From Rossellomorea orangium (GTDB lineage Bacteria > Bacillota > Bacilli > Bacillales > Bacillaceae_B), in assembly GCF_019334305.1 (NCBI RefSeq), contig NZ_JAHWGH010000001.1:62001-126000 (forward strand): a DNA stretch of 64,000 nt. Reading direction: 5' to 3'. Each line of letters opens with the position of its first letter. Positions within the stretch are counted from its first letter, which is position 1. The position numbers and the translations under genes were made by a program. The notes below the pieces were generated by a model, which saw nothing but the letters and a program-made list of their open reading frames with translations, was not told the DNA's origin and made no database searches. Shown one piece after another: positions 36,063 to 59,995 of the stretch.

Positions 36063-36093
36063 GAGGGACGGACCTTGTAAAGGTCCGTCCCTC
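36063..36093. repeat. GAGGGACGGACCT inverted pair forming a terminator
   Basis: Two copies face each other: GAGGGACGGACCT at 36063-36075 and AGGTCCGTCCCTC at 36081-36093, forming a 14-bp stem with a 3-base loop. It is followed by TTTTTG, so the REP pair is well placed to end transcription of the upstream small gene. It is the leftmost occurrence of the family in the window. Confidence 0.9.
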
Positions 36094-36217
36094 TTTTTGT
36101 GAAGTTTGTGTCTTTATGACTATTTTTTGTTAAGTTTTAATTTTTTATGTATTACAACAATTCCCCGTGTGGTATCATTATCCTGTTTGACACTACACAA
36201 TTAAGGGGAGATTTTTT

Positions 36218-38716
36218 TTGAAAAAGAAGACACTCGCAGGTGCTGCTCTCGCTTTAGGTTTAATTGTTCCTCAAGTTTCACCCTCTATTACATATGCAGA
36301 AGTTATGGACAAAGACATTGTCAATCTTCGCATTCTTGAAACAACAGACATCCACGTGAACCTCGTCAATTATGATTACTACCAGGATAAGGCGACTGAT
36401 AAGTATGGTCTCGCCAAAACGGCAACCCTGATCAAACAGGCCCGTTCTGAATCCAAGAACAGCTTATTGTTCGATAACGGCGACCTCATTCAGGGGAATC
36501 CCCTTGGTGATTATGTAGCAAAGGAAAATCCTCTCCAAGATGGCGAAACTCACCCGGTCTATAAAGCCATGAATCTACTAAACTATGATGCCGGAAACAT
36601 CGGTAATCACGAATTCAACTATGGGCTTGATTTCCTGGGTACATCGTTAAAAGGATCGAACTTCCCATATGTGAACGCCAATGTGTACGTAGATGATCAA
36701 GACGATAACCCTGACAATGACAAGAACTACTTCAAACCATATGAAATCCTTGACCGTACAGTGACAGATGAAGATGGTGACGAACATGCCATCAAGGTTG
36801 GCGTGATCGGATTCGTTCCGCCACAGATCATGCAGTGGGATAAAGCAAACCTTGAAGGAAAAGTCGTGGCAAAAGACATCATCGAAACAGCCAACAAATT
36901 CATTCCACAAATGAAAGCTGAAGGAGCCGACGTCATCGTTGCCATCCCTCACTCCGGTATCGGAAATGTCACACAAGAAGGCATGGAAGAAAACGCAACA
37001 TATGATCTTTCGAAAGTAGAAGGCATCAATGCGATCCTATTCGGTCATTCTCATGGGGTATTTCCTTCTGAAACATACGCCGGGATCGAAGGCGTCGATG
37101 TGAAAAAAGGGACGATCAACGGTGTTGGATCAGTTATGCCTGGTTCATGGGGAGACCATCTCGGTTTGGTTGACCTTGAATTGGAATTGGTAGATGGAAA
37201 ATGGAATGTGACGAATACAGAAGCTTCCACTCGTTCGATTCTGAAAGAAGACGGTACCCCTGCTGTTGAGGCAGATCAAGATATCCTTGACGCCGTGAAG
37301 GAAGATCATGACGCGACGATTGAATGGGTGCGCAGTGCAGTCGGGGAAACAACCTCTCCTATTAACAGCTACTTTGCTTTGGTGAGCGATGATCCTTCCG
37401 TTCAAATCGTAACCAATGCCCAGAAGTGGTATGTAGAGAAGTATATAAAGGGAACTGAATATGACGGTATTCCTGTCTTATCTGCAGGGGCACCATTCAA
37501 AGCCGGTACCCGCGCAAATCCTGACTACTACACAGATATCCCTGCAGGGGAAATCGCGATTAAGAACGTATCTGACTTATATCTGTATCCAAACACGCTT
37601 CAAGCTGTTCTGTTGACAGGTGCTGACGTGAAAGAATGGCTTGAGATGTCTGCCGGACAATTTAATCAAATCGATCCTGATAAATCAGACGAACAGAATC
37701 TTGTGAATGGGGATTACCGCTCGTACAACTTTGATGTAATCGATGGAGTGACTTACGAGATCGACGTAACAGAGCCCACGAAGTATGATGCAGAGGGTGT
37801 GCTGGTGAACAAAGACTCCAGCCGGATTAAGAACCTGATGTTTGACGGAAAACCGATCGATATGGACCAAAAATTCATCGTGGCAACGAATAACTACCGT
37901 GCCAGTGGAAAATTTCCTGGAGTGAAGAACTCAGAAATTATCGTCCAATCTCCTGATGAGAACCGTAATGTCATTATCGACTACATCATGGAGAAAAAGA
38001 CGATCGACCCTCAAGCAGACGGAAACTGGTCATTTGCACCGGTGAAAGGAAATGCAAATGTTGTTTTTGAAACGTCTTTAAAAGCACAAGATTACATTAA
38101 GGATTCAAGTACGTATAAATTCCTTGGCAAACAGGACAGCGGATTCGGAAAATATTCGATTAAGCTGAAACAAAGTGACTCTGTGAAGAAGTTCAGCGAT
38201 GTGGCTGCCGGACATTGGGCTGAAGATTATATTTATGCCCTGGTTGAAAAAGGAATCGTGCACGGGAAAACAGACACTACGTTTGAGCCAAAAGGTTCTA
38301 TCACCCGAGGTGAATTCGTTTCTTTACTTGCACGTGCCCTGGATTTAAAAGCTGAAGGTAATCACTTCAAGGATGTTGGTGGAGTACTGGCTGATGATAT
38401 CAATGCTGCATATGAAGCAGGCATTACAAAAGGGATTACGAAGGACTCGTTTGCACCGAAACGATTGATTACACGAGAAGAAATGGCTGCCATGATCGTC
38501 CGTGCTTACGAGGTGAAAGATGGAAAAACTTATACACCAACTATTAAGAATAGCTATAAGGACGGAAAATCAATTTCTTCACGATTTGTAGAAGACGTCC
38601 TTTCTGCGCAAGAGTTGGAGTTCATGACGGGATATGGAAGCGGACGCTTTGCTCCTAAAGAGAATGCTACTCGTGCTCAGGCAGCGAAGACGGTTTATAT
38701 GATGTGGAATAAATAA
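36218..38716 (+). CDS. Secreted 5'-nucleotidase/cyclic phosphodiesterase with SLH anchors
   Basis: 832 residues from a TTG preceded by AAGGGGAGA. Signal peptide (TLAGAALALGLIVPQV to TYAEV). Metallophosphatase domain: ETTDIHVNLVNYDY, LLFDNGDLIQGNPLGDY, NIGNHEFNYGLDFL, VAIPHSGIG and LFGHSHGVFP give the five metal motifs. The 5'-nucleotidase C-terminal domain spans about 370-620. Three SLH modules (FSDVAAGHWAEDYIYALVEK and two more) end the protein and bind pyruvylated wall polymer. It resembles YfkN-type enzymes that recover phosphate and nucleosides outside the cell, with SLH anchoring in place of LPXTG. Confidence 0.93.
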   Translation: MKKKTLAGAALALGLIVPQVSPSITYAEVMDKDIVNLRILETTDIHVNLVNYDYYQDKATDKYGLAKTATLIKQARSESKNSLLFDNGDLIQGNPLGDYVAKENPLQDGETHPVYKAMNLLNYDAGNIGNHEFNYGLDFLGTSLKGSNFPYVNANVYVDDQDDNPDNDKNYFKPYEILDRTVTDEDGDEHAIKVGVIGFVPPQIMQWDKANLEGKVVAKDIIETANKFIPQMKAEGADVIVAIPHSGIGNVTQEGMEENATYDLSKVEGINAILFGHSHGVFPSETYAGIEGVDVKKGTINGVGSVMPGSWGDHLGLVDLELELVDGKWNVTNTEASTRSILKEDGTPAVEADQDILDAVKEDHDATIEWVRSAVGETTSPINSYFALVSDDPSVQIVTNAQKWYVEKYIKGTEYDGIPVLSAGAPFKAGTRANPDYYTDIPAGEIAIKNVSDLYLYPNTLQAVLLTGADVKEWLEMSAGQFNQIDPDKSDEQNLVNGDYRSYNFDVIDGVTYEIDVTEPTKYDAEGVLVNKDSSRIKNLMFDGKPIDMDQKFIVATNNYRASGKFPGVKNSEIIVQSPDENRNVIIDYIMEKKTIDPQADGNWSFAPVKGNANVVFETSLKAQDYIKDSSTYKFLGKQDSGFGKYSIKLKQSDSVKKFSDVAAGHWAEDYIYALVEKGIVHGKTDTTFEPKGSITRGEFVSLLARALDLKAEGNHFKDVGGVLADDINAAYEAGITKGITKDSFAPKRLITREEMAAMIVRAYEVKDGKTYTPTIKNSYKDGKSISSRFVEDVLSAQELEFMTGYGSGRFAPKENATRAQAAKTVYMMWNK

Positions 38717-38841
38717 TATTTGGATGACCGGACTCCTTTGGGGGTTCGGTTTTTTTATGTGGAAATATAAGAGATTGTCGATTTTTCTATCGGTTTGAAA
38801 CTGGTAAAATATGCTACTATTTTGAAAAAGGGGTTGTTAGC

Positions 38842-39255
38842 ATGAATCGATCTACATATATGATCTTTGCAATGGTCCTTCTTCTGTACGGATGTAATCC
38901 AATCAACACTTCAAAAGAGGACGTTGATGAGGAACAAATAGACTATATTTCCTCATTTGATTGGATGGTTGATTCGAAAATCGGTGAAGAATCCGTCACA
39001 TTACACCACGGTCCTGAACATATCGAGAAATTGAAAGCTGCCGGAATTGATTTTAGTCCGTATCAAGGAAAAGATGCGACCATTACCACTTATCAATTGA
39101 AAGAAAAGCAAACGACGGGCGATGACTTGGAACTGGTGATATATGAAGTGGACGATAAGATTATCGGAGGATATGGGGTATTAGAGGGGTGGGATCCCGG
39201 GTTATTTTCTTTAAATGATAAAGAACGGTTGGTGAAGGATGATATTATTCGCTGA
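38842..39255 (+). CDS. Small lipoprotein
   Basis: 137 residues. Signal with lipobox LLLYGC (Cys18), then an acidic linker and a DUF-like domain with DLELVIYEVDDKIIGGYGVL. AAAAAGGGG lies upstream of the ATG. The C-terminal half looks like a small beta-rich extracytoplasmic domain that I cannot name. It is a single gene with its own terminator. Confidence 0.85.
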   Translation: MNRSTYMIFAMVLLLYGCNPINTSKEDVDEEQIDYISSFDWMVDSKIGEESVTLHHGPEHIEKLKAAGIDFSPYQGKDATITTYQLKEKQTTGDDLELVIYEVDDKIIGGYGVLEGWDPGLFSLNDKERLVKDDIIR

Positions 39256-39265
39256 TTGAATAGGT

Positions 39266-39313
39266 AAAAAGCTTTGGCGGGGTATTTCTGATCCCATCGC
39301 CAAAGCTTTTTTT
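39266..39313 (+). terminator. Terminator after lipoprotein gene
   Basis: AAAAAGCTTTGGCG pairs with CGCCAAAGCTTTT, a 13-14 bp stem followed by TTTTTT. The A-tract on the left means it could also work on the other strand. Confidence 0.9.
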
Positions 39314-39375
39314 TAGATGAGTAGGGACACAATCCGACTGGTCATGTCCCTGTGATGGCTTTTACTTCGTCGGCG

Positions 39376-39421
39376 AGGTCCGTCCCTCTATGGATATTGT
39401 AGAATCTTGAGGGACGGACCT
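39376..39421. repeat. GAGGGACGGACCT inverted pair, outward type
   Basis: AGGTCCGTCCCTC at 39376-39388 and GAGGGACGGACCT at 39409-39421, 20 bases apart. The pair ends 7 bases before the stop of the anti-sigma gene, so it lies in its 3' leader. Confidence 0.9.
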
Positions 39422-39427
39422 TAGTGA

Positions 39428-40813
39428 TTAGAATTCGTGCCATGCGATTTCAGGCGGGTAGGTGCCGGTTGTTTGGTGTGGCTTTTCGCCAGGTGGAACG
39501 TCTGCCAGTTTTCTTCCGTACATATTGAGTCCGTAGCCTTCGACGATAAGCTTAGGAGTAGAGGTCACTAGGATGCGGTATGCGAAATAGTCCCAAACGC
39601 GCTCCTCCCCAGTATCATTCTCAGAAATACGTGTTATTTCCTGGATCAGCTCATTTGTCAGCTCTTTTCCTCTTTCTGACGTCGTTCCTTCTTTTACTTT
39701 CAATTGGAAGATAAGTGAGGCTTCAGCATCAATTTTTTTCATTGTTACGTCTTCTACTTCATCGTAGTTCATCACTTTTTCTTTAGCTTGGGAGAACCAT
39801 GTATTGTTGAACTGCATGGGTAGCTTGAGATCTGCTTCTGTGATGAAGCGGACTTCTTTCGTGAGAAATTCTATTGGCATTTTTTTCGAATCCAACTCAA
39901 CTCGGACTACCTTTGCCTCTAAATCAATTCCTTCGACTTTATAATCACTGCCTGTTTTATCTAGCTTATACAGCCCTTCCACTATCAGTGATATTTCGTA
40001 ATCTCCAATGATATATTCGAGAGAGACATGATCATTCATCTCGTTATAAAAGTAGTACGGATCCCCTAAAGCGTTGATCACTTGCTTTACAGTGACTGAA
40101 GAATCACCTTGAAATTTCACCCCTGACTTATGGAGAGTCCCTCCCTGCTTTTCTGTGAAACTTAACAAGTAATTATCCCCTAAGCTGTAGACTGGCCCCC
40201 CCTCATACATTACAGCTAAATTTATATTCCCATATTTATCGGTAACACTCTCGTATGTGTCTCCAATTTCGACACCTGATCCATGTAGGATTCCTTTTGA
40301 TGCCTGGTCTTTAAATTCACCCGGATTCTCGATAATGGAAGAGAAGTCGAATGCGGGTGGAGTCAAGGTTACTTCTTCTCCCGTCTCCTTTTCTTCTTTT
40401 TTTTCGTTAGCCGGCTTATTTATATCATCCGTGTCAGGTCCTTCTTCCCTCACCGGCGATTGGCGTTTTTTATTTTGGGTGTCTTGTTTTTCTTCATCGA
40501 TTTTCTTTTGGAGGTCGTCCTCCGGTATGAAGGCCGAGTGGTCATTATCATCCTGGGGCTCTTGATTTTCTTCCATTTGATCCTTATCGGCCAGTTCATC
40601 TTTCGGTAAGTAGCTGCTGCCGAGAATGGATACGATGAAAATGATGGCGGCCGCTATTCCTACGTTGAGAACCATATTCCAGTTGAAGCCCTTCTTCTTC
40701 TTTTGTTTCTGGATTTTCGTCAAGATCGTTCGCTTCTGGCTTGGGATATCTATGTTTTGAAACAGTTCTTTATCTAATTCGTCTTTGAGATTGTGTAAAG
40801 GATCTTTATTCAT
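39428..40813 (-). CDS. Anti-sigma factor with long extracytoplasmic domain
   Basis: 461 residues. The ATG overlaps the sigma gene stop by 8 bases, so translation is coupled. Cytosolic part about 45 residues, one membrane helix (MVLNVGIAAAIIFIVSILGS), a highly charged linker (about 70-150), then a DUF4309-like segment (GVEIGDTYESVTDKYGNINL, DPYYFYNEMNDHVSLEYIIG) and a further C-terminal domain. It would hold the ECF sigma factor at the membrane until an outside signal is met. The signal is unknown. Confidence 0.8.
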   Translation of the reverse strand: MNKDPLHNLKDELDKELFQNIDIPSQKRTILTKIQKQKKKKGFNWNMVLNVGIAAAIIFIVSILGSSYLPKDELADKDQMEENQEPQDDNDHSAFIPEDDLQKKIDEEKQDTQNKKRQSPVREEGPDTDDINKPANEKKEEKETGEEVTLTPPAFDFSSIIENPGEFKDQASKGILHGSGVEIGDTYESVTDKYGNINLAVMYEGGPVYSLGDNYLLSFTEKQGGTLHKSGVKFQGDSSVTVKQVINALGDPYYFYNEMNDHVSLEYIIGDYEISLIVEGLYKLDKTGSDYKVEGIDLEAKVVRVELDSKKMPIEFLTKEVRFITEADLKLPMQFNNTWFSQAKEKVMNYDEVEDVTMKKIDAEASLIFQLKVKEGTTSERGKELTNELIQEITRISENDTGEERVWDYFAYRILVTSTPKLIVEGYGLNMYGRKLADVPPGEKPHQTTGTYPPEIAWHEF

Positions 40814-41381
40814 CGGTACCCCTCCCTTGCAGCAAGGTTTTTAATTTCTGTCTGCCCCTGTCCAGACGGGTCCTTACGGTGGAAGCTTTAAGATTTAGTA
40901 GTTCGCCAATTTCGTCGGTTGTTAGTTCTTCATAATAATATAATAAGATGATTTCCCTATACTTCATGGGAAGTGCGAAGATTTGTGCTGACACGCTGTT
41001 GTTTTCCTCTGTTTGAATGAGCTCCTGCTCGGGTGTAGCGGCGATTTCTTTGTTGAACATGCGGTGGAATTTATCCACCACGGTGTTTCTTCTGAAGTAT
41101 GCAGACTTCTTATAGTCCTTGCATTGGTTCACGGCAATTCGGTATATCCACGTTTTGTAGGATGAATTCTGGTTGAAGCTGCCCAGTGAATGGTACGCCT
41201 TAATGAAAACCTCCTGGCATATATCCTGTGCTGTCGACCAATCCTGCACGTATATATAAGCAAGCTTCGTAATCTGAGTTTCATACTGATCAATCAGTGT
41301 CTCAATCAAATGATCACTATGTGTCTTCGTATCGTCCAAGCGCCCAAGCCCCCCTCTCACCTGATGTAATATCTCTGTCAT
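40806..41381 (-). CDS. ECF sigma factor
   Basis: 191 residues with GGGAGAGGG before the ATG. Region 2: DQYETQITKLAYIYVQDWST and DICQEVFIKAYHSLGSF, region 2.3-2.4 SSYKTWIYRIAVNQCKDYKK. Region 4: LPMKYREIILLYYYEELTTD and LLNLKASTVRTRLDRGRQKL. SigV/SigM-like group. It is paired with the membrane protein downstream. Confidence 0.93.
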   Translation of the reverse strand: MTEILHQVRGGLGRLDDTKTHSDHLIETLIDQYETQITKLAYIYVQDWSTAQDICQEVFIKAYHSLGSFNQNSSYKTWIYRIAVNQCKDYKKSAYFRRNTVVDKFHRMFNKEIAATPEQELIQTEENNSVSAQIFALPMKYREIILLYYYEELTTDEIGELLNLKASTVRTRLDRGRQKLKTLLQGRGTDE

Positions 41382-41446: not shown

Positions 41447-41555
41447 GAGGGACGGACCTCCCTTTTCAGCGCTTATTTCGCAGGTAGTCATTTGGAACGT
41501 TGGAGTGGTGCGGTTGCGTGGTTCTCGTTCCGAGATGGCGGGAGGTCCGTCCCTC
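41447..41555. repeat. GAGGGACGGACCT pair
   Basis: GAGGGACGGACCT at 41447-41459 and AGGTCCGTCCCTC at 41543-41555 face each other across 83 bases, upstream of the sigma gene. The inner stretch carries no gene. Confidence 0.85.
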
Positions 41556-41650: not shown

Positions 41651-41690
41651 AAAGAGGTCCGTCCCTTAAATGTGTGGGGCGGACCTCTTT
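41651..41690. repeat. GAGGGACGGACCT inverted pair, diverged copy
   Basis: AAAGAGGTCCGTCCC at 41651-41665 pairs with GGGGCGGACCTCTTT at 41676-41690. One arm has GGGGCGG for GGGACGG, with a single mismatch opposite. A hairpin of about 15 bp between the sigma gene and the hut terminator. Confidence 0.85.
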
Positions 41691-41798: not shown

Positions 41799-41802
41799 AG
41801 TA

Positions 41803-45678
<3,876 letters not shown>

Positions 45679-45686: not shown

Positions 45687-47211
45687 TTGTCGTTTCCTCC
45701 TTTGTTTTGGTTGGTTTGATGAGTGTGCTTAGGGTTGTTTGCTGCAGCCATTCGTTTGCTTTTTCTATGTCTTTCGAGAAGATCCGGTCCTTTGTAATGG
45801 ACGGAATGACCTTTCTCGCTGCTTCGTAAAATTGTTTTGTCTTGCTTGCCATGAGGTCCGTCCCTCGATGTTCTGCTGCCTGTAAGTTGCAGATGAGTTC
45901 TACGGCGAGGACTCTTCTTGTGTTCTGCAAGATTTGATAGGCGTGGCGTGATCCGATCGTTCCCATGCTGACGTGGTCTTCCTGGTTGGCTGATGACGGA
46001 ATCGAGTCAACGCTCGCCGGGTGGGCCAGGGTTTTGTTTTCGGATACGAGTGATGCCGCACAGTACTGCATGATCATGGCTCCTGACTGCAGACCCGGCT
46101 GCGGGCTTAAGAAAGGCGGCAGGTCGTTGAGCTGCGGGTTCACGAGACGTTCGATCCGTCGTTCTGAGATGTTGGCGAGTTCTGCGACGGCGATTTTCAT
46201 GAAGTCCATGGCGAATGCGATCGGCTGGCCGTGGAAGTTCCCACCTGATATGATTTTTTCACCATCGTCGAAGATCAGTGGGTTATCCGTTGCTGCGTTC
46301 ATTTCGATTTCGAGCTTTTCTTTTACGTAGTCAAGGGCCTGCCAGGATGCTCCGTGAACCTGAGGGATGCACCTTAGAGAGTAGGCGTCCTGGACCCGGA
46401 GCTCCCCTTGCTTCGTTGTAAGCTTGCTATCTTGTAAGTAGTCTCTGATTCTTTGAGCAGTAGCGACCTGCTGAGGATATCCCCTCACTAAATGAATATC
46501 TTCGTCGAAGGCATCCATGATTCCTCTTAATCCTTCCAAGGTCAGACTGGCGATCATTTCACTTTGGTAGGCGAGTTCCTCCGCTTCCAGGTATCCGATG
46601 ACGCCCATAGCCGTCATCGCCTGTGTTCCGTTGATGAGTGCCAATCCTTCTTTCGCCTGTAGCTGGATTGGGAAAATGTTTTCTTTTGATAGGACTGGCA
46701 GGGTTTGATGTACTTCACCCTGATAGTGGACCTCACCTTCACCCATCAAAGCCAGTGCTAAATGGGAAAGAGGCGCTAAGTCTCCACTTGCTCCAAGTGA
46801 ACCCTGTTGTGGGATCACTGGATGGATTCCCTTGTTGAGGAACTCCGCTAATCGTTCAACGATGACCGGTCTAACACCGGAATACCCTTTTAACAGAGCA
46901 TTACACCTTAGCAGAAGCATCGCACGTGAAACGTTCTCAGGGAATGGATCACCCACTCCACACGCATGAGAATGAATCAGGTTCAACTGAAGCTCCTCTA
47001 CATCATCCGCATCGATCAGCACATCACTGAACTTCCCAAAGCCCGTGTTGATCCCATACACCACACGCTTCTCCTTCACAATCCTCTCAACCGCCGCACG
47101 ACTCTTCCTCACCCGCTCCATACTCAGCGGCGAAAGCTCCACGTGCTCCTTCCCATAAATAACCCTCTTCGCCTCATCCAAACTCAAACTACAACCCGTC
47201 AACTCCACCAT
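45679..47211 (-). CDS. hutH: Histidine ammonia-lyase
   Basis: 510 residues with GAAGGAGTGA upstream. [20 protein letters not shown] near residue 140 holds the Ala-Ser-Gly triad that forms the MIO cofactor. [15 protein letters not shown] and [14 protein letters not shown] are family motifs. It deaminates histidine to urocanate. It is the first structural gene after the HutP-controlled terminator. One exact GAGGGACGGACCT copy is read HRGTDLM. Confidence 0.97.
45854..45866 (-). repeat. GAGGGACGGACCT copy inside hutH
   Basis: Exact copy, read [14 protein letters not shown]. The B. subtilis protein, as I recall it, has VEYRGIEHAASYTK at this position with no gap, so the motif replaced codons in place. 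Confidence 0.85.
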
Positions 47212-47233
47212 TTCGGTTCACTCCTTCTATATT

Positions 47234-47245
47234 AGGGACGGACCT
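47234..47245. repeat. AGGGACGGACCT copy in hutP-hutH gap
   Basis: A 12-base copy 23 bases upstream of the hutH start codon, on the plus strand, so it lies within the hut leader RNA just before the ribosome site. Confidence 0.8.
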
Positions 47246-47327: not shown

Positions 47328-47340
47328 GAGGGACGGACCT
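47328..47340. repeat. GAGGGACGGACCT copy in hutP-hutH gap
   Basis: Exact copy in the same orientation as the one at 47234, so this is a direct pair and not an inverted one. It lies between the HutP-controlled terminator and hutH. Confidence 0.85.
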
Positions 47341-47439: not shown

Positions 47440-47886
47440 TTAAATATGATTGATTCCAAGTCCGATCGTTTCGTGCTCCAATCCCTTGATGGGCGCACCG
47501 ATCGTCCCGTATAACGCTACAGCGATCCATTCGCCTTCCTCTTCACTTTCATATGGAGTGCCCCTTACAACAGAGAATCGCAATCCCACGGTTCGAAGGA
47601 TCTCCCCAAGTTGCGTATGTCCCCGGGTGACTCCGGTTAAGGCTTCCATAATCGCGTGGTACAAGGCGTGCATCTCCCGGTAAAGATCTTCCCGGACAAG
47701 GTCACTCCGCTTCGCCGCCGTTTCAATCGCGGCCACGATCTTCTGACTGTCCATCGATCCGATCTTCCCGGTGCAATAGCTCCAATTCAGTTCATTGAAA
47801 TGACGATTCCACTCTTCTTCCTCCCTGTCTAACAGGAGAAGAAGCATGGCATTCTTTCCGATACGAGTATGATCTGTCTTATCCAA
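47440..47886 (-). CDS. hutP: Hut operon antiterminator
   Basis: 148 residues from a TTG, with AAGGTG about 10 bases upstream. No ATG is available in frame. HutP fold: [18 protein letters not shown] with the His pair that bind Mg and histidine, and the family tail [20 protein letters not shown]. With L-histidine it binds the leader RNA and lets RNA polymerase pass the terminator before hutH. Confidence 0.95.
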
Positions 47887-48055: not shown

Positions 48056-48068
48056 AGGTCCGTCCCTC
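48056..48068. repeat. Single GAGGGACGGACCT copy before RAYT-2 region
   Basis: AGGTCCGTCCCTC on the plus strand, followed by AAAAAAAG, between hutP and the unknown minus-strand gene at 48113. No partner is nearby. Confidence 0.85.
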
Positions 48069-48696: not shown

Positions 48697-49269
48697 TCAC
48701 TTTTTAATTGTATTTTTGTCGAGAGCTTCGTCGTGGACTTCTTTTTCTACGTAATTCTTATAATGTTCGACCTGAGGTATCGGAAAGTAATTGAGAGTAC
48801 GTTCCTTCGAAAGAAGTGGGTTATCGATGGAGTGAATGTAGGAAGGATAACTGCTCCAAGGGTAAGACTCGGGGCGGATGGTGAGCTTGCCTTCTACGGG
48901 ATTTTGATGAATATATCTGCTCGCTTTGATGAAATAGGATGGTGTATCGATTTTAGTGGACCCATACCGTCCTTGGAAAACATGTCCGACATAGTCATAT
49001 TTTTTGTTGAAATACACGGCGTAGCGGGTGTGGAGGATGCGAATGATCTTCTCCAGCGGGACATCGTGGGTTTCGATCAGCAGATGAATGTGGTTGGGCA
49101 TCAAACAGTATGCGTGGATGGTAAATGGATATTTGTCCTTCGTCTCTTGCAAATACAATAAGTATTTCTTGCGGTCCTCATCATCATGGAACAGATCCTG
49201 CTTCCTGTTCCCTCTTGCGGTCACATGGTAAGTCGTTCCCGGACTCCAATCCCGAGGGGTTCGAACCAT
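48697..49269 (-). CDS. REP-associated tyrosine transposase (RAYT-2)
   Basis: 190 residues with GAAGGAGTGATGTT before the ATG. Y1 transposase domain: GTTYHVTARGNRKQDLFHDD, the HUH pair in LMPNHIHLLIE, RYAVYFNKKYDYVGHVFQGR with the tyrosine, and SRYIHQNPVEGKL. Shorter than RAYT-1 and without its C-terminal HTH. An inverted pair of GAGGGACGGACCT copies lies 80-120 bases upstream (49350-49391) and a single copy lies beyond the next gene (48056), the normal setting for a RAYT and its cognate repeats. Confidence 0.9.
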   Translation of the reverse strand: MVRTPRDWSPGTTYHVTARGNRKQDLFHDDEDRKKYLLYLQETKDKYPFTIHAYCLMPNHIHLLIETHDVPLEKIIRILHTRYAVYFNKKYDYVGHVFQGRYGSTKIDTPSYFIKASRYIHQNPVEGKLTIRPESYPWSSYPSYIHSIDNPLLSKERTLNYFPIPQVEHYKNYVEKEVHDEALDKNTIKK

Positions 49270-49349: not shown

Positions 49350-49391
49350 GAGGGACGGACCTTTAATGAACCGGGTAGAGGTCCGTCCCTC
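49350..49391. repeat. GAGGGACGGACCT inverted pair upstream of RAYT-2
   Basis: GAGGGACGGACCT (49350-49362) and AGGTCCGTCCCTC (49379-49391) are separated by 16 bases. This is the typical REPIN arrangement and the closest pair to RAYT-2. Confidence 0.92.
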
Positions 49392-49743: not shown

Positions 49744-50166
49744 GTGAAAACAATGGATTTACATGTAGAGCTACAACATTACCGCAATGACGTACTAGAA
49801 CTTACCCAGAGAGAAGCCGCCCTTCGTTTAAATATCAACCAAAGTACGCTATCAAATTATGAAAATGGCACAAGAGACATCCCCTACAAGATGCTCCTTA
49901 CCTTTAAAGAAGTCTATAAAATCCCGACCCACGAAATGAACCGGATCATGTACGGGGAGAAGAGCGACGGCCTCGGACAAAGTCACGACCCCATGATCCT
50001 GCGTGAACACTTCGAAGACGATGAGACAAGAGAAATCATGAAAATCCTTCAAGATTACCCAAAACTCAAGCGAACCCTGTCATCCCTCTCCTACTTCACA
50101 GAAAAACGCAAAGAGAAATTCACTTCTCAGGTCTACCACCTCTACCAAACGATGAAGGACTGGTAG
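49744..50166 (+). CDS. XRE-family transcription regulator
   Basis: 140 residues from a GTG after AAAGGGATAGTCG. An ATG nine bases on is also possible. HTH at residues 10-65 (DVLELTQREAALRLNINQST, LSNYENGTRDIPYKMLLTFK). The C-terminal half (about 85-140) is helical (DDETREIMKILQDYPKLKRT) and unlike SinR. A 53-residue gene that resembles SinI converges on it from the other side of a terminator. The stop codon G is shared with a REP copy. Confidence 0.88.
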   Translation: MKTMDLHVELQHYRNDVLELTQREAALRLNINQSTLSNYENGTRDIPYKMLLTFKEVYKIPTHEMNRIMYGEKSDGLGQSHDPMILREHFEDDETREIMKILQDYPKLKRTLSSLSYFTEKRKEKFTSQVYHLYQTMKDW

Positions 50167-50253
50167 AGGGACGGACTTCCATTTCAGGAACCGAAGCCTT
50201 GTTAAATCAAGGATTTGGTTCCTTTTTAGCTTTGAGATAGAGGTCCGTCCCTC
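50166..50253. repeat. REP pair flanking a terminator
   Basis: GAGGGACGGACTT (50166-50178, last bases changed) and AGGTCCGTCCCTC (50241-50253) face each other around a hairpin terminator. The left copy overlaps the stop codon of the XRE gene. Confidence 0.85.
50186..50227 (+). terminator. Terminator after XRE regulator gene
   Basis: AGGAACC and GGTTCCT pair around an inner CCTTG/CAAGG stem, followed by TTTTTAG. It is nested inside the REP pair. Confidence 0.75.
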
Positions 50254-53601: not shown

Positions 53602-55212
53602 ATGAAAACACTCAAACGCCTCACCACCCTAACCATCCTCCTCTCCCTACTCTCCTTCACCCTGCCCTCCACCTGCCTCTTCGCCGCCCAATCCAACAAA
53701 AACGTCATCCTCCTCATCATGGACGGCACCAACTCCGACATCCTCACCCTCTCCCGCTGGTATCGAGGGACGGACCTCCAACTGGATAAGGTTCTGACAG
53801 GCGGCGTCCGTACATACTCCGCACAATCAGCCATCACCGATTCGGCTGCAGCGGGATCGGCTATGGCAACGGGTGTGAAAACCAAAGCGGATTACATCGG
53901 AATGAACCCTGATGGACGCCCCGCTCTCACCGTCCTTGAAGGGGCAAAGCTGTCAGGCTACCGGACCGGCATCGTGTCGACCTCCCCTGTCCAGCACGCC
54001 ACCCCTGCAGCCTTCACCTCCCACACCTTGAACCGGGATGAATTCGGTGATATCGGTGAACAGCAGGTGTACCAGGGTCTGGACGTGGTGTTAGGAGGCG
54101 GTGCTGCGTGGCTAAAACCACAATCCAAAGACCACGCAAAAGACGACGACGGCATGCTGAAAACGAAGGAAGTCAGCCGTGAAGACGGGGAAAACCTGGT
54201 TAAGGAGATTTCGGCCTCCGGCTACGATATGGCCCTGAATAGGGACGGACTTCTGAGAAAAGCCGTATCTTCCAAGCTGTGGGGAGTGTTTGCGGACGAA
54301 GACATTTCATATGAATTCGACCGAAAGACGTTAAAGCCTGATGAACCTTCCCTGGCGGAGATGACACGCGCCGCCATGAACCGGCTCTCTCAAGGGGAAA
54401 AGGGTTTCTTTCTCATGGTCGAAGGAAGCAAGGTGGATTGGGCAGCTCATAAAAACGATCCTGTCGGGATGATCAGTGAGGTGTTGAGCTTTGACGATGC
54501 AGTGGGAGAAGCACTCGACTTTGCCCGTAAAGACCGGAATACCTTGGTTGTTGCCGTGACGGATCACGGAAACAGCGGTTTGACCCTCGGGAATCAGGGA
54601 ACGAATGGGGATTATAAAAATCTGCCTGCCGAGAAGTTCATTGAGCCATTGAAGAAAGCCAAACTGACTGTTAAGGGCGCGACCTCCCAGCTTAAAAAGA
54701 ATCGGACTAATTTAAAAGAGGTTCTTTCAAGCTATGGGTTGGGGAACCTGAGCAGTAAAGAGTATTGTGCGATGGAAGATGCGAAAAGTGTCGAGGATCT
54801 CGAGAGTGAAATGGTGAGGCTGATGGCAAAGCGGGCAAACCTCGGATTCACTACCCATGGTCATACCGGTGAAGACGTTTTCCTTTATGCTTATGGGCCG
54901 GGGAAACCGATGGGGTTAATTGAGAATATAGACATTCCGAAGGTGATCTCTTCGTATATGGGATTTTCATTAACGACTGGGAAATTCGCTTCCTGGTATG
55001 TGGACGGAAAAGAATTTTATCGTGGTAAGGGATTTAAGGTGAAAATTGAGGGACGGACCTCCAAAAATCCAGTAATGGTGGCGACGCGTGATGACCAAGT
55101 GCTACGTTTTCCGGAAAATAAAGATTTTTATTGGAGAAACGGTGACAAAGTGGGGTTGAAGAGCGTGAATGTGTATGATGGTGAGACGTTTTATGTGCAT
55201 GTGGAGGAGTAA
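53602..55212 (+). CDS. Secreted alkaline phosphatase
   Basis: 536 residues with AAAAAGGAGCG upstream. Signal peptide LTTLTILLSLLSFTLPST to LFAAQ. Alkaline phosphatase motifs: VILLIMDGTNSD (first Asp ligand), ITDSAAAGSAMATG with the catalytic Ser, FLMVEGSKVDWAAHKND, VAVTDHGNSG and TTHGHTGEDV for the two-zinc/magnesium site. Releases phosphate outside the cell, matching the nucleotidase at 36.2 kb. The first 150 coding bases are strikingly C-rich compared with the rest. Three copies of the GGGACGGAC motif lie in the gene. Confidence 0.93.
   Translation: MKTLKRLTTLTILLSLLSFTLPSTCLFAAQSNKNVILLIMDGTNSDILTLSRWYRGTDLQLDKVLTGGVRTYSAQSAITDSAAAGSAMATGVKTKADYIGMNPDGRPALTVLEGAKLSGYRTGIVSTSPVQHATPAAFTSHTLNRDEFGDIGEQQVYQGLDVVLGGGAAWLKPQSKDHAKDDDGMLKTKEVSREDGENLVKEISASGYDMALNRDGLLRKAVSSKLWGVFADEDISYEFDRKTLKPDEPSLAEMTRAAMNRLSQGEKGFFLMVEGSKVDWAAHKNDPVGMISEVLSFDDAVGEALDFARKDRNTLVVAVTDHGNSGLTLGNQGTNGDYKNLPAEKFIEPLKKAKLTVKGATSQLKKNRTNLKEVLSSYGLGNLSSKEYCAMEDAKSVEDLESEMVRLMAKRANLGFTTHGHTGEDVFLYAYGPGKPMGLIENIDIPKVISSYMGFSLTTGKFASWYVDGKEFYRGKGFKVKIEGRTSKNPVMVATRDDQVLRFPENKDFYWRNGDKVGLKSVNVYDGETFYVHVEE
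53765..53777 (+). repeat. GAGGGACGGACCT copy in phosphatase gene, 5'
   Basis: Exact copy read WYRGTDLQLDK. Alkaline phosphatases tend to have WY(K/R)G here, so the motif again lies on permissive codons. Confidence 0.85.
54241..54252 (+). repeat. AGGGACGGACTT copy in phosphatase gene, middle
   Basis: 12-base variant read N-R-D-G-L-L in another frame. It ends TT for CT, like the copy at 50166. Confidence 0.65.
55048..55060 (+). repeat. GAGGGACGGACCT copy in phosphatase gene, 3'
   Basis: Exact copy read in the third frame (E-G-R-T-S), within KVKIEGRTSKNPV. Confidence 0.85.
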
Positions 55213-55542
55213 GGTGGGGATAGGGTAGGGTAGGGTTTAATTGGGATTGTTTATTTTCGGGGAGTTTATTTTCAATTCTCTTCACAGAGTATAAAGATAC
55301 AACACTTTTGCGTAATCAATACGATATTGATTAGCGACTAGCCGGATGTATTCTCGACTCGCCCTCCCCTCCCCACGGTACCTGGCACCAACACGACCAA
55401 CCGTGCCAGGCACCACCTCCTCACACCATTCGACAAACTCCCCACCCTCCTTTCCACCACTTCCCCCACCACATGTTCCTTTTCCCCCTCCTTTTGCGTT
55501 ATAATAAAAGAATGCGATTTTATAGATTGGAGAGGTTGGTTG
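55213..55542. other. Intergenic stretch with GGTGCCTGGCACC-type repeat
   Basis: No gene seen. At 55375-55415 two near-palindromic copies face each other: GGTACCTGGCACC and CCGTGCCAGGCACC. A degraded copy lies at 9271-9285 (GGTGCCTGCCCCACC). The stretch on either side is strongly C-rich on the plus strand. The ywqB promoter should lie near 55490-55525. Confidence 0.6.
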
Positions 55543-57177
55543 ATGTCGATTCGTATTCAGGAGTTGAAGGATAAGTTGCTTCCCATGAGTCAGTCGATAC
55601 AGGGTGAGCTGGACCCGAATCTGGATGAGAGCAAGAACGTCGTCTCGAAGGGCCTTCTTTTGTTCCGTCAGAATCTGGTTTCGAACGTGAAGGTCCGGGA
55701 TGATGAGGTGACGGCGGAGGTGCAGGATGTGACGCCTGTGACCCTTGAGCTGAACTTGTTGTTCCCCCTGTTAAGCAAGTGCTCGTGCCCGCAGAATCAA
55801 TGGTGCCGGCATCAAATGGCGACTTTTTTTATGCTCTATAACAAGGTCGGCCGGGTCAGTGAGTGGATACAGAATTGGCGGAGTCAGTCACAGCCTGCCA
55901 CTCAACAGGAGCAATCACTGGATGATCTCATGAAGAAGCACGGCAACCTGAAGAAAGCCAGTGATCTATTAAATGAACGGAAAACACGGGGCAACACGCC
56001 TGATGAATGGTGGCAGTTCTTTGACTCCCTTCTTAAAAATGAAGATTTGGAGTTACTTGAAAGACAGCCCTATTTAATGGATGTCCTCGTGCAGAATATT
56101 ACGAAGCGATTTATGAAGGAAGCTCCCTTCGAACGGGAATGGAAGCCCCTTTATCAGCTTTTCGCGACCCTATATCTATCGATTCACATCGACCTTTATT
56201 TAAAAAAACGGAACGTCGAGCTGAGCCGGGAGCAATACAGTATGTATGATTTCCTGTTAGGCGAAATGGAAGACGCTGTGGAAAAACTGTCCATCCACGC
56301 CATGCCGTTCAGCTTCGATCCGTATATTGCTTTTTTGAAAAAGAAGACGATCGAGATGAGCGATTCCACCGAGAACAGTACGATGATGAAGGCGGAAGTA
56401 TACCGCTTCCTCTGGTACTACCTGTTCAAGCAGAAATCGTGGCGCCGTGAAGAAGTGGCGCGGTTGGAAGAGACGGACAATGAGGATACGACCTTTTACA
56501 ACGTTGCCCTCCTACATCAATATCTCCTCCTGGAGGATCTGAATAAAGCAAGTGAAGTGGTAGATGAGCTCGGGACAGAACTCGTCGCTTTCAGTGAATT
56601 CTGGCTCCGTAAATTTTTTGTCGGCAAGCGGTACGAAGTCGGCTTCTTCCTGGTCCGGAATATCCTCTCAAGGATGCCGGATCACCTCGGGACCCTGGAT
56701 TATTATGAGGCAACCCGGTTCGTCCGCTGGTTCGTACGGATATTGCCGATGGATTGGCTCATGGAAAAGGACAGCGCCCTCGTGAATGAGCTCCTGCTCT
56801 CCATGTTGCCGTACAGCTTCTTTTCGTACAATGAGTACTTAATCAGCGCGAAGGCCTATCGTGAGTGGGTCGAGCTGCAAAGATATATGAACTACAGCAT
56901 CGGTGAGATGGAAGGCATGGGGCTCCGAGATGTGACGAAGGAAGCGCCTGAATTAGCCCTTCCCATCTATTACACCGGCGTCATCACAGCGATCGACCAG
57001 AAGAACCGTGACAGCTACAAGCTGGCTGTCCGTTATATGAAGAAAATCCGGACGATTTATAAAAAAACGAAGAAAACGGATAAGTGGGACGTCTATCTCA
57101 CCTATATCCTCGACAAATACAAGCGATTACGTGCGTTCCAAGAGGAGTGCAGAAAGGGTAAGTTAATCGATGCTTAA
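55543..57177 (+). CDS. ywqB: SWIM zinc-finger protein, YwqB-like
   Basis: 544 residues from the ATG at 55543, with GGAGAGG seven bases upstream. The SWIM motif is CSCPQNQWCRHQMATFFML near residue 82-100 (CxC, then CxH). The rest is helical (LWYYLFKQKSWRREEVARL). The stop overlaps the start of the SNF2 helicase gene by 8 bases. SWIM/SNF2 pairs act together on DNA, but the role of this one in bacilli is not established. Confidence 0.9.
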   Translation: MSIRIQELKDKLLPMSQSIQGELDPNLDESKNVVSKGLLLFRQNLVSNVKVRDDEVTAEVQDVTPVTLELNLLFPLLSKCSCPQNQWCRHQMATFFMLYNKVGRVSEWIQNWRSQSQPATQQEQSLDDLMKKHGNLKKASDLLNERKTRGNTPDEWWQFFDSLLKNEDLELLERQPYLMDVLVQNITKRFMKEAPFEREWKPLYQLFATLYLSIHIDLYLKKRNVELSREQYSMYDFLLGEMEDAVEKLSIHAMPFSFDPYIAFLKKKTIEMSDSTENSTMMKAEVYRFLWYYLFKQKSWRREEVARLEETDNEDTTFYNVALLHQYLLLEDLNKASEVVDELGTELVAFSEFWLRKFFVGKRYEVGFFLVRNILSRMPDHLGTLDYYEATRFVRWFVRILPMDWLMEKDSALVNELLLSMLPYSFFSYNEYLISAKAYREWVELQRYMNYSIGEMEGMGLRDVTKEAPELALPIYYTGVITAIDQKNRDSYKLAVRYMKKIRTIYKKTKKTDKWDVYLTYILDKYKRLRAFQEECRKGKLIDA

Positions 57178-59995
57178 ACTGTCTTCCGTCAAGATCAATG
57201 TCCATACAACTGAATACGAAGACCGTTTCTTCATCACTGCGGAAAACGACAAAGGAGAGCTTCTCCCTCCAAAGGATTGGAAGGGCCAGCTGTTTCTTTG
57301 GCATGAAGAAAGCTATTATGGGACCCTCCTTGAGGAAACCGATGGCGGAATTCCCGTCACCCAGTGGCAGTTCCTGACGTTACTTGCAGGCGAGCACTTC
57401 AGCGGCATGATCCAGTGGGACTGGGATGAAACCGGGCAGGCGTGTATCGCCATCGCCCCGGTCATTTACGAATCGGTGGAAGCCGGACGCTGGCTCCCGC
57501 GGTTCGAGGAATGGCAGGAAAAAGGACTGCAGTTCCACATCCCCAATGAAGTCTGGTCGAACTTCAACGACGAATTCTGGGAGGAAGAGCTCCCCGGTGG
57601 AGGTCCGTCCCTCAAATCGTTGACCGAATCCTGGTTTCAGGGTGCGTTGAATGAGGCGATGGCTTCAGGCGGGTCTAGTGCGATGAAGCGGATCCAGAAG
57701 CTGAAGGAGAGTACGCTGACTTCAGAGGAGTTGGATGCTTACTTTGATGAGAGACGGTGGAGTGAGTGGATTTCAGGCGGCGATGAAGAGCTGCCATTCT
57801 CCATTGGGCTCCGCATAACAGAACCCCTCGATGAGGATCAGTCTTGGGAGCTTGAAACGGTATTGCGGGACAGAAAGAAAGCGAGTCGAATCATATCCCT
57901 GACTGAGGACACGGTCCCTCCTTCCTGGAAAAAGCATCTCTCCGACGTTTCGGAAGAACAGGAACGCTGGATAAAGATGATGCCGATTCTCCGTGACACG
58001 GACGGTTCCCTGCGGACGGCTCTCGGTGAGCACGATGCATGGGATTTTCTATCCGTTCTGAGCGAGAAGCTCATCGACCTTGATATCGAAATCCTCCTGC
58101 CATCGTGGTGGGAAGCGATGAAGGACGCACAGGTACTGGTGAAAGCCAAGCTTAAGAATACCGACACCAGCTACCGTCCTTCTTTCGTTGGATTGAACGC
58201 CATGCTCGATTTCGACTGGCGCTTGTCCATGAACGGCGTCAATTTATCGGAAGATGACTTTAATCAACTTGTGGACGATCAACGTCGCTTGGTGAAAATC
58301 CGCGGTCAGTGGATGAAGCTCGACCCTGCCATGATCCGCCGTATACAGCAGATGATGACGAAAGCGAAGGCTGAAGGAATCTCAATTCAGGATATGCTGG
58401 AGCAGGAACTGGTCCCACGTGATGGTGATGAGTCAGAGTTGGATCCTGATGATGACGAGCATGATCCATATAAATACGCCCGCATTCAGCTGGAACTCAA
58501 CCGATCGATGAAAAAAATGATCCATCAACTGACAAATGTGTCATCAATTCCGCTGACGGAAACGCCTGATGATTTTATCGGCGAGCTCCGTTCTTATCAG
58601 CAGCTTGGGATGAGCTGGATGCTCTTTTTACGGAAATTTGAATTCGGTGCATGTCTGGCCGATGACATGGGTCTCGGAAAAACGGTTCAGCTGATTACGT
58701 ATCTGCAGCATGTGAAGAAAACCGAGAAACCGGAGACACCTTCTCTGATCATCGCTCCAACCTCAGTACTCGGAAACTGGCAGCGCGAGTTGGAGAAGTT
58801 CGCACCGGATTTGAAGGTTCACCTTCATTATGGACCGACCCGTGCGAAAGGCGAAGACTTTGCCGCTACGATCAAGGATGTCGATGTGGTACTCACTTCA
58901 TACGGCTTGTCTCATATTGATTTCGATGAGCTGTCGCTTGTCGAATGGACCTCGATTTCCCTTGATGAGGCGCAGAATATCAAGAATGCCAATACGAAGC
59001 AATCCCGGGCGATCCGCAAGCTGAAGGGTAAGCATCATATTGCGTTAACGGGGACCCCGATGGAAAACCGTCTATCGGAACTCTGGTCCATCTTTGACTT
59101 CCTGAACCACGGCTATCTCGGTGGTTTCACACAGTATCAGAAAAATTACATCGCTCCCATCGAAAAAGACGAGGACGAAGCAAAGGTCAAAGAGCTTCAG
59201 GCCAAGATTAAGCCTTTCTTATTGCGTCGAACGAAGAAAGACCCTGAAGTCGAGTTGAATCTTCCTGAAAAGCTCGAGCAGAAAGAGTATTGTCATTTGA
59301 CGGCTGAGCAGGCGGCACTTTATGAGCAGCTCGTGAAAGACACTCTTGCGAAAATCGAGACTTTGAGCGGATTTGAGCGCAAAGGTCTGATCCTGCAGAT
59401 GCTGAATCAGTTGAAGCAATTATGCAATCACCCTGCTCTCTATCTGAAGGAACCGGATCCAAAATCGATCCTGTCCCGGTCTGAAAAAATGCAGAAGCTG
59501 AAGGATATCGTGGAAACCGCTCTTGAATCCGGAGAAGCCTGCCTAATTTTCACACAGTATATTTCCATGGGTGAGATGATCCAGGAAGTGATGAAGGAAG
59601 AGTTCAATGTGAAGGTGCCGTTCCTGAACGGTAGCATGGCAAAAGGTAAACGGGATGAGCTTGTGGAGAAATTCCAGAACGGCGAGTTCCCTGTCTTCCT
59701 GCTATCACTGAAAGCCGGCGGTACCGGATTGAATTTGACTGCCGCCAATCACGTCGTCCACTACGACCGCTGGTGGAATCCCGCCGTTGAAAACCAGGCG
59801 ACGGACCGTGCCTACAGGATCGGACAGAAACGATTCGTACACGTGCATAAGCTCGTATCATCAGGTACGCTTGAAGAAAAAATCGATGCCATGCTGATGA
59901 AAAAGCAGGCTCTGAACGATGAGATCATCCGCAGCGATCAGTGGGTGACAGAATTGTCGGATCAGGATTTGGAATCTTTGTTGGTGTTGGAGTAG
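57170..59995 (+). CDS. ywqA: SNF2-family helicase, YwqA-like
   Basis: 941 residues. The N-terminal half (SNF2_assoc type) is less conserved. Helicase core: CLADDMGLGKTVQLITYL (motif I) near residue 500, SLDEAQNIKN (DEAQ, motif II), ALTGTPMENRLSELWSIFDF (III), and GTGLNLTAANHVVHYDRWWN with TDRAYRIGQ (V-VI). ATP-driven DNA translocase. One GGTCCGTCCCTC copy lies at 57601, read G-G-P-S-L in the variable N-terminal half. Confidence 0.93.
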   Translation: MLKLSSVKINVHTTEYEDRFFITAENDKGELLPPKDWKGQLFLWHEESYYGTLLEETDGGIPVTQWQFLTLLAGEHFSGMIQWDWDETGQACIAIAPVIYESVEAGRWLPRFEEWQEKGLQFHIPNEVWSNFNDEFWEEELPGGGPSLKSLTESWFQGALNEAMASGGSSAMKRIQKLKESTLTSEELDAYFDERRWSEWISGGDEELPFSIGLRITEPLDEDQSWELETVLRDRKKASRIISLTEDTVPPSWKKHLSDVSEEQERWIKMMPILRDTDGSLRTALGEHDAWDFLSVLSEKLIDLDIEILLPSWWEAMKDAQVLVKAKLKNTDTSYRPSFVGLNAMLDFDWRLSMNGVNLSEDDFNQLVDDQRRLVKIRGQWMKLDPAMIRRIQQMMTKAKAEGISIQDMLEQELVPRDGDESELDPDDDEHDPYKYARIQLELNRSMKKMIHQLTNVSSIPLTETPDDFIGELRSYQQLGMSWMLFLRKFEFGACLADDMGLGKTVQLITYLQHVKKTEKPETPSLIIAPTSVLGNWQRELEKFAPDLKVHLHYGPTRAKGEDFAATIKDVDVVLTSYGLSHIDFDELSLVEWTSISLDEAQNIKNANTKQSRAIRKLKGKHHIALTGTPMENRLSELWSIFDFLNHGYLGGFTQYQKNYIAPIEKDEDEAKVKELQAKIKPFLLRRTKKDPEVELNLPEKLEQKEYCHLTAEQAALYEQLVKDTLAKIETLSGFERKGLILQMLNQLKQLCNHPALYLKEPDPKSILSRSEKMQKLKDIVETALESGEACLIFTQYISMGEMIQEVMKEEFNVKVPFLNGSMAKGKRDELVEKFQNGEFPVFLLSLKAGGTGLNLTAANHVVHYDRWWNPAVENQATDRAYRIGQKRFVHVHKLVSSGTLEEKIDAMLMKKQALNDEIIRSDQWVTELSDQDLESLLVLE
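57601..57613 (+). repeat. AGGTCCGTCCCTC copy inside ywqA
   Basis: Exact copy in the reverse orientation relative to the gene, the only in-gene copy of that kind, read G-G-G-P-S-L-K. It is the rightmost member of the family in the window. Confidence 0.8.

What the first reader, a model, noticed from the sequence alone, without database searches (positions are those of the whole stretch)
36063..57613. A 13-base motif, GAGGGACGGACCT, repeated about 24 times in 21.5 kb
I count exact or near-exact copies at 36063, 36081, 39376, 39409, 41447, 41543, 41655, 41676, 42512, 43937, 44158, 45637, 45854, 47234, 47328, 48056, 49350, 49379, 50166, 50241, 53765, 54241, 55048 and 57601. None was seen in the first 36 kb or after 57.6 kb. 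A given 13-mer is expected far less than once here by chance. Between genes the copies mostly form inverted pairs. The field covers the interval between ywqC and ywqA, which in B. subtilis as I recall are neighbours, so it coincides with a block inserted relative to that genome.
Basis: partly seen in the sequence, partly recalled or inferred. Interest (0 to 1): 0.85.

Follow-up and report, generated by a model that had tools for sequence, protein, structure and literature searches.

The report
Transposase repeat written into neighbouring genes
A short DNA word that travels with a domesticated transposase is scattered through a Bacillus-like bacterium's genome, and around the transposase gene it has been built letter by letter inside ordinary working genes and kept there, which is not how such repeats are known to spread.

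Summary
In detail: 25 copies (17 exact) between 36063 and 57613, 0.58 expected. They are not a unique block: the genome has 298 exact copies, but the field is about 12 times denser than average and surrounds a REP-associated tyrosine transposase gene (RAYT) at 48697-49269. The motif is the REP of a REPIN/RAYT family in Rossellomorea; other RAYTs of the genus have other motif dialects.

The surprise is the copies inside genes (hutG, hutI, hutU twice, hutH, an alkaline phosphatase, a SNF2 helicase). They are not REP insertions: relatives align there with no or small gaps and differ by substitutions, several changing amino acids. They are conserved in 17-21 of 20-21 motif-rich genomes, synonymous positions included: 16 of 17 four-fold sites fixed versus 77 of 931 elsewhere. 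At two such sites a species with another RAYT dialect carries its own dialect. In a sampled complete genome, in-gene copies are about 16 times denser near the RAYT.

Gain and upkeep resemble DNA uptake sequences; the force behind them, and that RAYT reads these copies, are inferred.

The parts
48697..49269 (-). RAYT-B, REP-associated tyrosine transposase, 190 aa; the presumed reader of the motif
   Evidence: PF01797 E 2.8e-16; NF047646 81 bits, cut-off 80; orthologues 78-91% in named Rossellomorea loci L034-L047
36063..36093 (.). inverted pair (REPIN-like)
   Evidence: two exact copies; folds with a 14-bp stem, z -8.6
39376..39421 (.). inverted pair (REPIN-like)
   Evidence: two exact copies; hairpin z -5.5
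41447..41555 (.). inverted pair between the ECF sigma gene and hutG
   Evidence: two exact copies
41655..41686 (.). inverted pair, 1 and 2 mismatches
42512..42524 (-). copy inside hutG, codon 76, reads RGTDL
   Evidence: core in 15 of 15 motif-rich loci examined, 0 of 7 motif-poor
43937..43949 (-). copy inside hutI, codon 22, reads GDGP; exact 11-base core, 2 mismatches in the 13-mer
   Evidence: core in 21 of 21 motif-rich loci
44158..44170 (-). copy inside hutU, codon 506, reads DGTDL; exact core, 2 mismatches in the 13-mer
   Evidence: core in 19 of 21 motif-rich
45637..45649 (-). copy inside hutU, codon 13, reads RGTDL
   Evidence: core in 21 of 21 motif-rich; motif-poor read mostly KGTEI and the like, no gap
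45854..45866 (-). copy inside hutH, codon 449, reads RGTDL
   Evidence: core in 20 of 21 motif-rich
47233..47245 (+). single copy upstream of hutH (1 mismatch)
47328..47340 (+). single copy between hutP and hutH
   Evidence: HutP PF09021 at 47440-47886
48056..48068 (-). single copy between hutP and a 160-aa frame next to RAYT
49350..49391 (.). inverted pair directly upstream of RAYT-B
   Evidence: two exact copies; hairpin z -4.9
50166..50253 (.). inverted pair (1 mismatch and exact) at the end of the HTH gene 49744-50166
53765..53777 (+). copy inside the alkaline phosphatase gene, codon 55, reads RGTDL
   Evidence: core in 17 of 20 motif-rich, motif-poor read K-G-x-x-L without gap
54240..54252 (+). 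near-copy inside the alkaline phosphatase gene, codon 213; the G024 orthologue carries the exact G024 dialect here
   Evidence: GGGACGGACTT in 18 of 20
55048..55060 (+). copy inside the alkaline phosphatase gene, codon 483, reads EGRTS
   Evidence: core in 18 of 20 motif-rich, not in G025
57601..57613 (-). copy inside the SNF2 helicase gene, antisense, codons GGPSL; the G024 orthologue carries the exact G024 dialect here
   Evidence: core in 20 of 20 motif-rich

Best explanation
The 13-mer is the REP unit of a REP/REPIN family served by the RAYT at 48697-49269. Inverted pairs between genes are REPINs, and the field is the RAYT-proximal concentration of the family. In this Rossellomorea clade the motif is also a DNA-level signal that is selected, or driven, inside coding sequence: point mutations that build it were fixed even where they changed amino acids, and it is then kept at synonymous positions, most of all in the genes that flank the RAYT. 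Shown: the RAYT, its dialect partners, origin by substitution, conservation, enrichment near the RAYT. Inferred: that RAYT itself reads the in-gene copies. Inferred and uncertain (about 0.3 on its own): that motif-bearing alleles gain by biased recombination or transformation in the manner of DNA uptake sequences, so that motifs linked to the RAYT gain most.
For: RAYT models. Field around RAYT: in the complete genome G003, 19 copies in the 40 kb at RAYT, 0-6 per 20 kb in the 18 other stretches within 200 kb, and in 20 spaced samples 0-3 in 18, 5 in one, 10 in one. Dialects go with RAYT: GAGGGACGTACCT 185 in G024 and 0-3 in 35 others; GGGACGGTTCTCG 115 and 118 in G019 and G002, 0-22 in 34 others; the hut-linked RAYTs form one supported clade (99/97) split by dialect. 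Substitution: sites aligned to motif-poor species without gap in hutU, hutH, phosphatase and prmC. Four-fold sites 16 of 17 versus 77 of 931, P 3e-16. All 8 core-exact in-gene sites of the window are conserved. Dialect tracking at two coding sites in G024. In-gene copies near RAYT 8 in 34 kb coding versus 9 in 623 kb, P 8e-7; even the 9 exceed permuted 13-mers (mean 0.38, maximum 3 of 60). Two of those 9 were followed: prmC core in 18 of 21 motif-rich (G031 apart) and 0 of 8 motif-poor; an ABC-F-type gene 12 of 18 and 0 of 8.
Against: No binding data. In-gene copies are mostly absent in other RAYT fields: 16 of 22 field-motif tests have none, 6 have 1-3. In G024, 23 of 23 unpaired distant copies sampled are intergenic (one paired copy is called in-gene); in G019 none of 28 is in a gene. 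G031 has this RAYT type and 206 copies but one in-gene copy among 15 in the 40 kb fetched. G001 lacks the RAYT at this locus, yet its hutH has the exact 11-base core, either a relic or the protein's own RGTDL. RAYT lies near the inferred origin, where copies are denser anyway, so the two are confounded. The four-fold test took sites with the core in at least 15 genomes, so it is partly circular. SNF2 has a one-codon gap and hutG a two-codon gap beside the site, and hutI small length differences. Copy number is low and uneven for an uptake signal.
Confidence: 0.8

Rival explanations
1. Ordinary REPIN/RAYT family: copies spread by RAYT-mediated transposition, and the in-gene copies are tolerated insertions.
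For: RAYT, inverted pairs, genome-wide intergenic copies, dialects. In most other RAYT fields the copies are intergenic.
Against: In-gene sites align to motif-poor species without gap or with one or two codons' difference, not a REP-sized insertion; synonymous positions are fixed.
Confidence: 0.1
2. RAYT-directed conversion: RAYT releases REP single strands that overwrite partly matching sites, mostly near its own gene, so the motif is rewritten rather than selected.
For: Gap-free replacement, enrichment close to RAYT, dialect tracking.
Against: Flanks of in-gene copies share nothing beyond the motif, so an incoming strand would lack homology arms; sites differing at positions 1-2 keep the native bases while the core is fixed (hutU codon 506, hutI).
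Confidence: 0.12
3. RNA-level or regulatory signal in the hut and phosphatase messages.
For: In-gene core copies of the window are 7 sense and 1 antisense; every hut enzyme gene has one.
Against: SNF2 and prmC copies are antisense and as well conserved; distant in-gene copies are 5 sense, 4 antisense; the same motif is the genome-wide repeat.
Confidence: 0.08
4. Chromosome-architecture signal of the Chi, KOPS or macrodomain type, with RAYT nearby by accident.
For: Density falls away from the origin side of the chromosome, apart from a field near the terminus.
Against: Unpaired copies show no clear strand bias (24 leading, 18 lagging); dialects follow the RAYT type.
Confidence: 0.05
5. Protein-level constraint: RGTDL, GDGP and EGRT are simply conserved peptides.
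For: Three sites were near-matches beforehand (hutU codon 506, hutI, hutH).
Against: Wobble positions are fixed, and motif-poor relatives have other residues at hutU codon 13, hutG and the phosphatase sites.
Confidence: 0.03

Closest known systems
REP/REPIN families with a cognate RAYT (TnpA-REP), e.g. Pseudomonas fluorescens SBW25 and Escherichia coli
   Same: A RAYT gene, hundreds of short repeats, inverted pairs forming hairpins, the RAYT flanked by its repeat, repeat type following RAYT type.
   Different: In SBW25 only 14 of 1,067 of the commonest 16-mers overlap genes (passage of PMC3116915). Here in-gene copies arose by substitution, are conserved between species and concentrate near the RAYT; no common GTAG is seen 5 prime of the motif.
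DNA uptake sequences (DUS) of Neisseriaceae
   Different: No uptake sequence is known to me from Bacillaceae (recalled).
Intragenic REPs, e.g. Opitutus terrae and the Rickettsia RPE elements
   Same: REP-like sequence read as part of proteins.
   Different: Described there as insertions, many adding 20-30 residues and clusters up to 82 (section 15 of PMC3733652), with no link to a RAYT locus mentioned in that section.

Membership tests
REP/REPIN-RAYT | RAYT gene of the Y1/HUH family | tested here: met
   PF01797 E 2.8e-16; NF047646 81 bits, cut-off 80; no solved relative by sequence at E 0.1; HIH and Tyr read from the translation, motif names recalled
REP/REPIN-RAYT | Short repeat in copy numbers far above chance | tested here: met
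   298 exact, control 0
REP/REPIN-RAYT | Inverted pairs forming hairpins | tested here: met
   33 of 76 core copies in the G003 sample are intergenic and paired; three window pairs folded, z -8.6, -5.5, -4.9
REP/REPIN-RAYT | Repeats flank the RAYT and co-vary with RAYT type | tested here: met
REP/REPIN-RAYT | Each unit an imperfect palindrome | tested here: inconclusive
   GAGG and CCTC ends pair, but -1.2 kcal/mol and z -1.1
REP/REPIN-RAYT | GTAG tag beside the palindrome (marks one large REP superfamily) | tested here: not met
   the 25 flanks printed show no common GTAG; only the GTAG superfamily is excluded by this
REP/REPIN-RAYT | Extragenic placement | tested here: not met
   8 of 19 copies near RAYT and 9 of 57 elsewhere in the G003 sample are in genes; most other fields do meet it
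REP/REPIN-RAYT | RAYT binds and cuts its repeat as single strand | not testable with these tools
   needs protein
DNA uptake sequence | Raises uptake or transformation of DNA that carries it | not testable with these tools
   needs transformation assays
DNA uptake sequence | Copies in genes that arose without insertion and are conserved between species | tested here: met
DNA uptake sequence | Dialects matching the reader protein | tested here: inconclusive
   dialects match RAYT types, but RAYT is not known to be an uptake protein
DNA uptake sequence | Very many copies spread over the genome | tested here: not met
   298 exact copies; none in 9 of 20 spaced 20-kb samples of G003
DNA uptake sequence | Competence machinery with a sequence-specific DNA receptor | not tested
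   no search made

The most novel reading that the evidence does not exclude
A domesticated transposase and its repeat have become a sequence-marked recombination or transformation system in Gram-positive bacteria: a RAYT-read counterpart of DNA uptake sequences that drives its own motif into the coding sequence of the genes linked to it, so that the RAYT locus and its homology arms are preferentially inherited.
Probability: 0.2. Interest if true: 0.92.

Novelty: new variant of a known kind. Interest (0 to 1): 0.72.

Why it matters
Why RAYTs persist in single copy for very long times without moving is an open question of the field. A RAYT whose motif is built by substitution into neighbouring genes, follows its dialect and is kept at silent positions shows that some process, selective or driven, rewards motif-bearing DNA, and it makes that process testable: bind, cut, recode silently, delete the RAYT, transform with and without the motif. 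If the DNA-uptake-like reading is right, it would be a sequence-specific exchange system in Gram-positive bacteria, where none is known to me (recalled).

Tried and rejected
In-gene copies as REP insertions: rejected by alignments with no or small gaps. Chance: rejected. Protein-level conservation alone: rejected by wobble positions. Strand-biased signal of the Chi/KOPS type: 24 leading, 18 lagging, not supported. Lower synonymous divergence near RAYT as a sign of exchange: four-fold divergence between the window and G003 is 0.34-0.40 in several field genes but 0.45-0.56 in others beside RAYT, and 0.49-0.76 in most genes further off with hits; inconclusive, codon bias not excluded. A general rule that RAYTs drive their motif into genes: not supported, 16 of 22 other field-motif tests had no in-gene copy, 6 had 1-3, some above the permuted control, and distant copies in G024 and G019 are intergenic. 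Solved relatives of the RAYT by sequence: none at E 0.1. G016 looked like a locus without RAYT, but its contig ends before the place where RAYT would lie, so it was dropped; three loci (G001, G021, G027) remain.

Literature: searches (REPIN+RAYT; Rossellomorea+repeat; tyrosine transposase+REP sequences+coding sequence; DNA uptake sequence+Bacillus+codon; REP-associated tyrosine transposase+Bacillus; RAYT+natural transformation) listed no title or abstract describing this; the library lacks most subscription journals.

Rows dropped before counts: hutU, 30 loci of 33 genomes with a match; phosphatase, 30 loci of 35 genomes, with G035 split in two pieces left out and G031 counted apart; SNF2, 29 of 30 loci, the truncated G035 left out; hutG, 22 chosen loci, 15 motif-rich (two of them named loci) and 7 motif-poor; ABC-F-type gene, 26 of 30 loci, partial or paralogous ones left out. 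Gene calls outside the window are from my own simple script, not from an annotation. Some named loci are probably the same assemblies as G handles (equal contig lengths, e.g. L034 and G007), so they are not added up.
Full report
OBSERVATION. The 13-mer GAGGGACGGACCT occurs 25 times with up to 2 mismatches in the window (17 exact), all between 36063 and 57613; shuffles give 0.58. The genome of 4.57 Mb has 298 exact copies, and the reversed pattern none. That is 65 per Mb against about 790 per Mb exact in the field. Among 36 genomes of the genus, 22 have 169-298 exact copies and 14 have 0-13; 25 other genera of the order, one genome each, have none. The genus is Rossellomorea, by the record titles of the closest RAYT loci.

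WHAT IT IS. A search for the Y1 transposase family finds three genes in the genome; one is in the field at 48697-49269 and one at 6487-7290 in the window. Both pass NCBI's REP-associated tyrosine transposase model. Around other RAYTs the commonest words differ: for example Halobacillus 17 copies of TGACCTGAGGTG, 16 of them in inverted pairs, and within Rossellomorea the dialects GAGGGACGTACCT (G024), GGGACGGTTCTCG (G002, G019), GGGGACTGTCCCC (G008) and GGGACAGGTAC (G001, G021). Genome-wide counts follow: 185 of the G024 dialect in G024 and 0-3 in the other 35 genomes; 118 and 115 of the second in G002 and G019 and 0-22 in the other 34. The hut-linked RAYTs form one clade (99/97) with G024, G002 and G019 apart from the motif-rich ones; inner supports are 87/88 and 92/89. 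G031, whose SNF2 and phosphatase are only 72% and 62% identical, has a RAYT of the motif-rich type and 206 copies. So the motif is a REP and the pairs between genes are REPINs; three pairs fold into hairpins.

THE FIELD. In the complete genome G003, 40 stretches of 20 kb (800 kb of 4.51 Mb) were read. The two that meet at the RAYT have 9 and 10 copies; the 18 others within 200 kb have 0-6; of 20 spaced samples 18 have 0-3, one 5 and one 10, the last with many inverted pairs near the terminus. Copies in genes are 8 in 34 kb of coding sequence near RAYT and 9 in 623 kb elsewhere (P 8e-7); copies between genes are 11 and 48 (P 1.5e-4). The origin, inferred from GC skew, is about 0.3 Mb from RAYT, and copies are denser on that side, so nearness to RAYT and to the origin are not separated.

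COPIES INSIDE GENES. The window has eight core-exact copies in genes: hutG, hutI, hutU twice, hutH, alkaline phosphatase twice, SNF2, and a third, weaker one in the phosphatase (54240). The core GGGACGGACCT is present in hutU codon 13 in 21 of 21 motif-rich genomes, hutU codon 506 19 of 21, hutH 20 of 21, phosphatase 17 and 18 of 20, SNF2 20 of 20, hutI 21 of 21 and hutG 15 of 15 examined. Motif-poor relatives align at hutU, hutH and the phosphatase without a gap: hutU codon 13 reads AAGGAACGGAAAT or similar, phosphatase codon 55 K-G-[SAQ]-x-L in place of R-G-T-D-L. SNF2 has one codon more and hutG two codons more than most relatives beside the site. One exception: G001, which lacks the RAYT here, has the exact core in hutH.

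SELECTION ON DNA. In hutU, hutH, phosphatase and SNF2, 16 of 17 four-fold sites inside the cores are fixed (95% or more one base) against 77 of 931 elsewhere in the same genes (P 3e-16). The sites were taken with the core in at least 15 genomes, which favours the result; but every core-exact in-gene copy of the window is conserved. Two species of the clade (window and G003) differ at 36-45% of four-fold sites in hutG, hutI, hutU, hutH and SNF2, so silent change has had time. G024, with another RAYT dialect, has exactly its own dialect at phosphatase codon 213 and at the SNF2 site. Three syntenic loci without a RAYT (G001, G021, G027) lack the core at the examined sites, save hutH of G001 (the phosphatase of G027 was not in the alignment).

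FAR FROM THE RAYT. The 9 distant in-gene copies (up to one mismatch) of the G003 sample exceed permuted 13-mers (mean 0.38, maximum 3 of 60). I followed two, chosen as exact 13-mers in long genes. In prmC (by Pfam) the core is in 18 of 21 motif-rich genomes (G031 apart, which lacks it) and 0 of 8 motif-poor; in an ABC-F-type ATPase gene in 12 of 18 and 0 of 8, absent from one subgroup, so gained later. Gains therefore went on after the clade arose and are not confined to the RAYT locus.

LIMITS. The in-gene habit is nearly confined to this clade. Of 22 field-motif tests at other RAYTs 16 had no in-gene copy and 6 had 1-3, while five main-clade fields had 7-10 against permuted means of 0.13-0.37. 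In G024, 23 of 23 unpaired distant copies sampled are between genes, one paired copy is called in a gene, and the two in-gene copies at RAYT stand alone; in G019 none of 28 sampled is in a gene. G031 has one in-gene copy among 15 near its RAYT.

MECHANISM. The motif's partner is the RAYT, by linkage and dialect. REP hairpins are bound and cut as single strands by RAYTs of other bacteria (abstract and discussion of PMC8266576). What rewards the motif in genes is not shown. I rank highest a bias in exchange, as for DNA uptake sequences, because these too sit in genes, are better conserved than their surroundings, face motif-free sequence in relatives and have dialects matching their reader (passages of PMC3630211 and PMC2397512). 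Linkage to RAYT would follow if RAYT must be present for the motif to gain, or if the protein acts mainly near its gene. Rewriting by released REP strands and a regulatory role remain possible.

PAPERS. Seen: PMC3733652 (passages and section 15), PMC8266576 (abstract, part 1 of the discussion), PMC3630211, PMC2397512, PMC3116915 and PMC8049555 (passages); PMC6006769 and PMC3686654 in search listings only.

Noticed in passing
window 6487-7290 (-), and 1-20000: A second RAYT (268 aa) in the window with another word nearby, GGGACGGTTC, 4 times in the first 20 kb: two RAYT types about 42 kb apart.
   Followed up: partly
window 58000-64000: ATTGCGTCATTT occurs 4 times in 6 kb after the field; not identified.
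   Followed up: no
L060, L057, L058: Halobacillus RAYT loci: up to 17 copies of TGACCTGAGGTG in 20 kb, nearly all as inverted pairs with a constant spacing of 25: a very regular REPIN field around a RAYT.
   Followed up: partly
L123 (G033, 20 kb with two RAYTs): CTTAGATATGT 11 times, perhaps an array; not examined.
   Followed up: no
L185-L186 (G031): A distant species carries a RAYT of the motif-rich type next to its phosphatase gene and 206 motif copies, hinting at horizontal replacement of the RAYT.
   Followed up: partly
L205 (G005) 12427-12956: RAYT-B reads in two adjacent frames, so it is broken or misread, while the in-gene motifs are still there.
   Followed up: partly
L084 (G003 1238001-1258000): 13 copies of GGGACGGTTC in 20 kb, about 60-80 kb from the second RAYT of G003; which gene they belong to was not found.
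   Followed up: no
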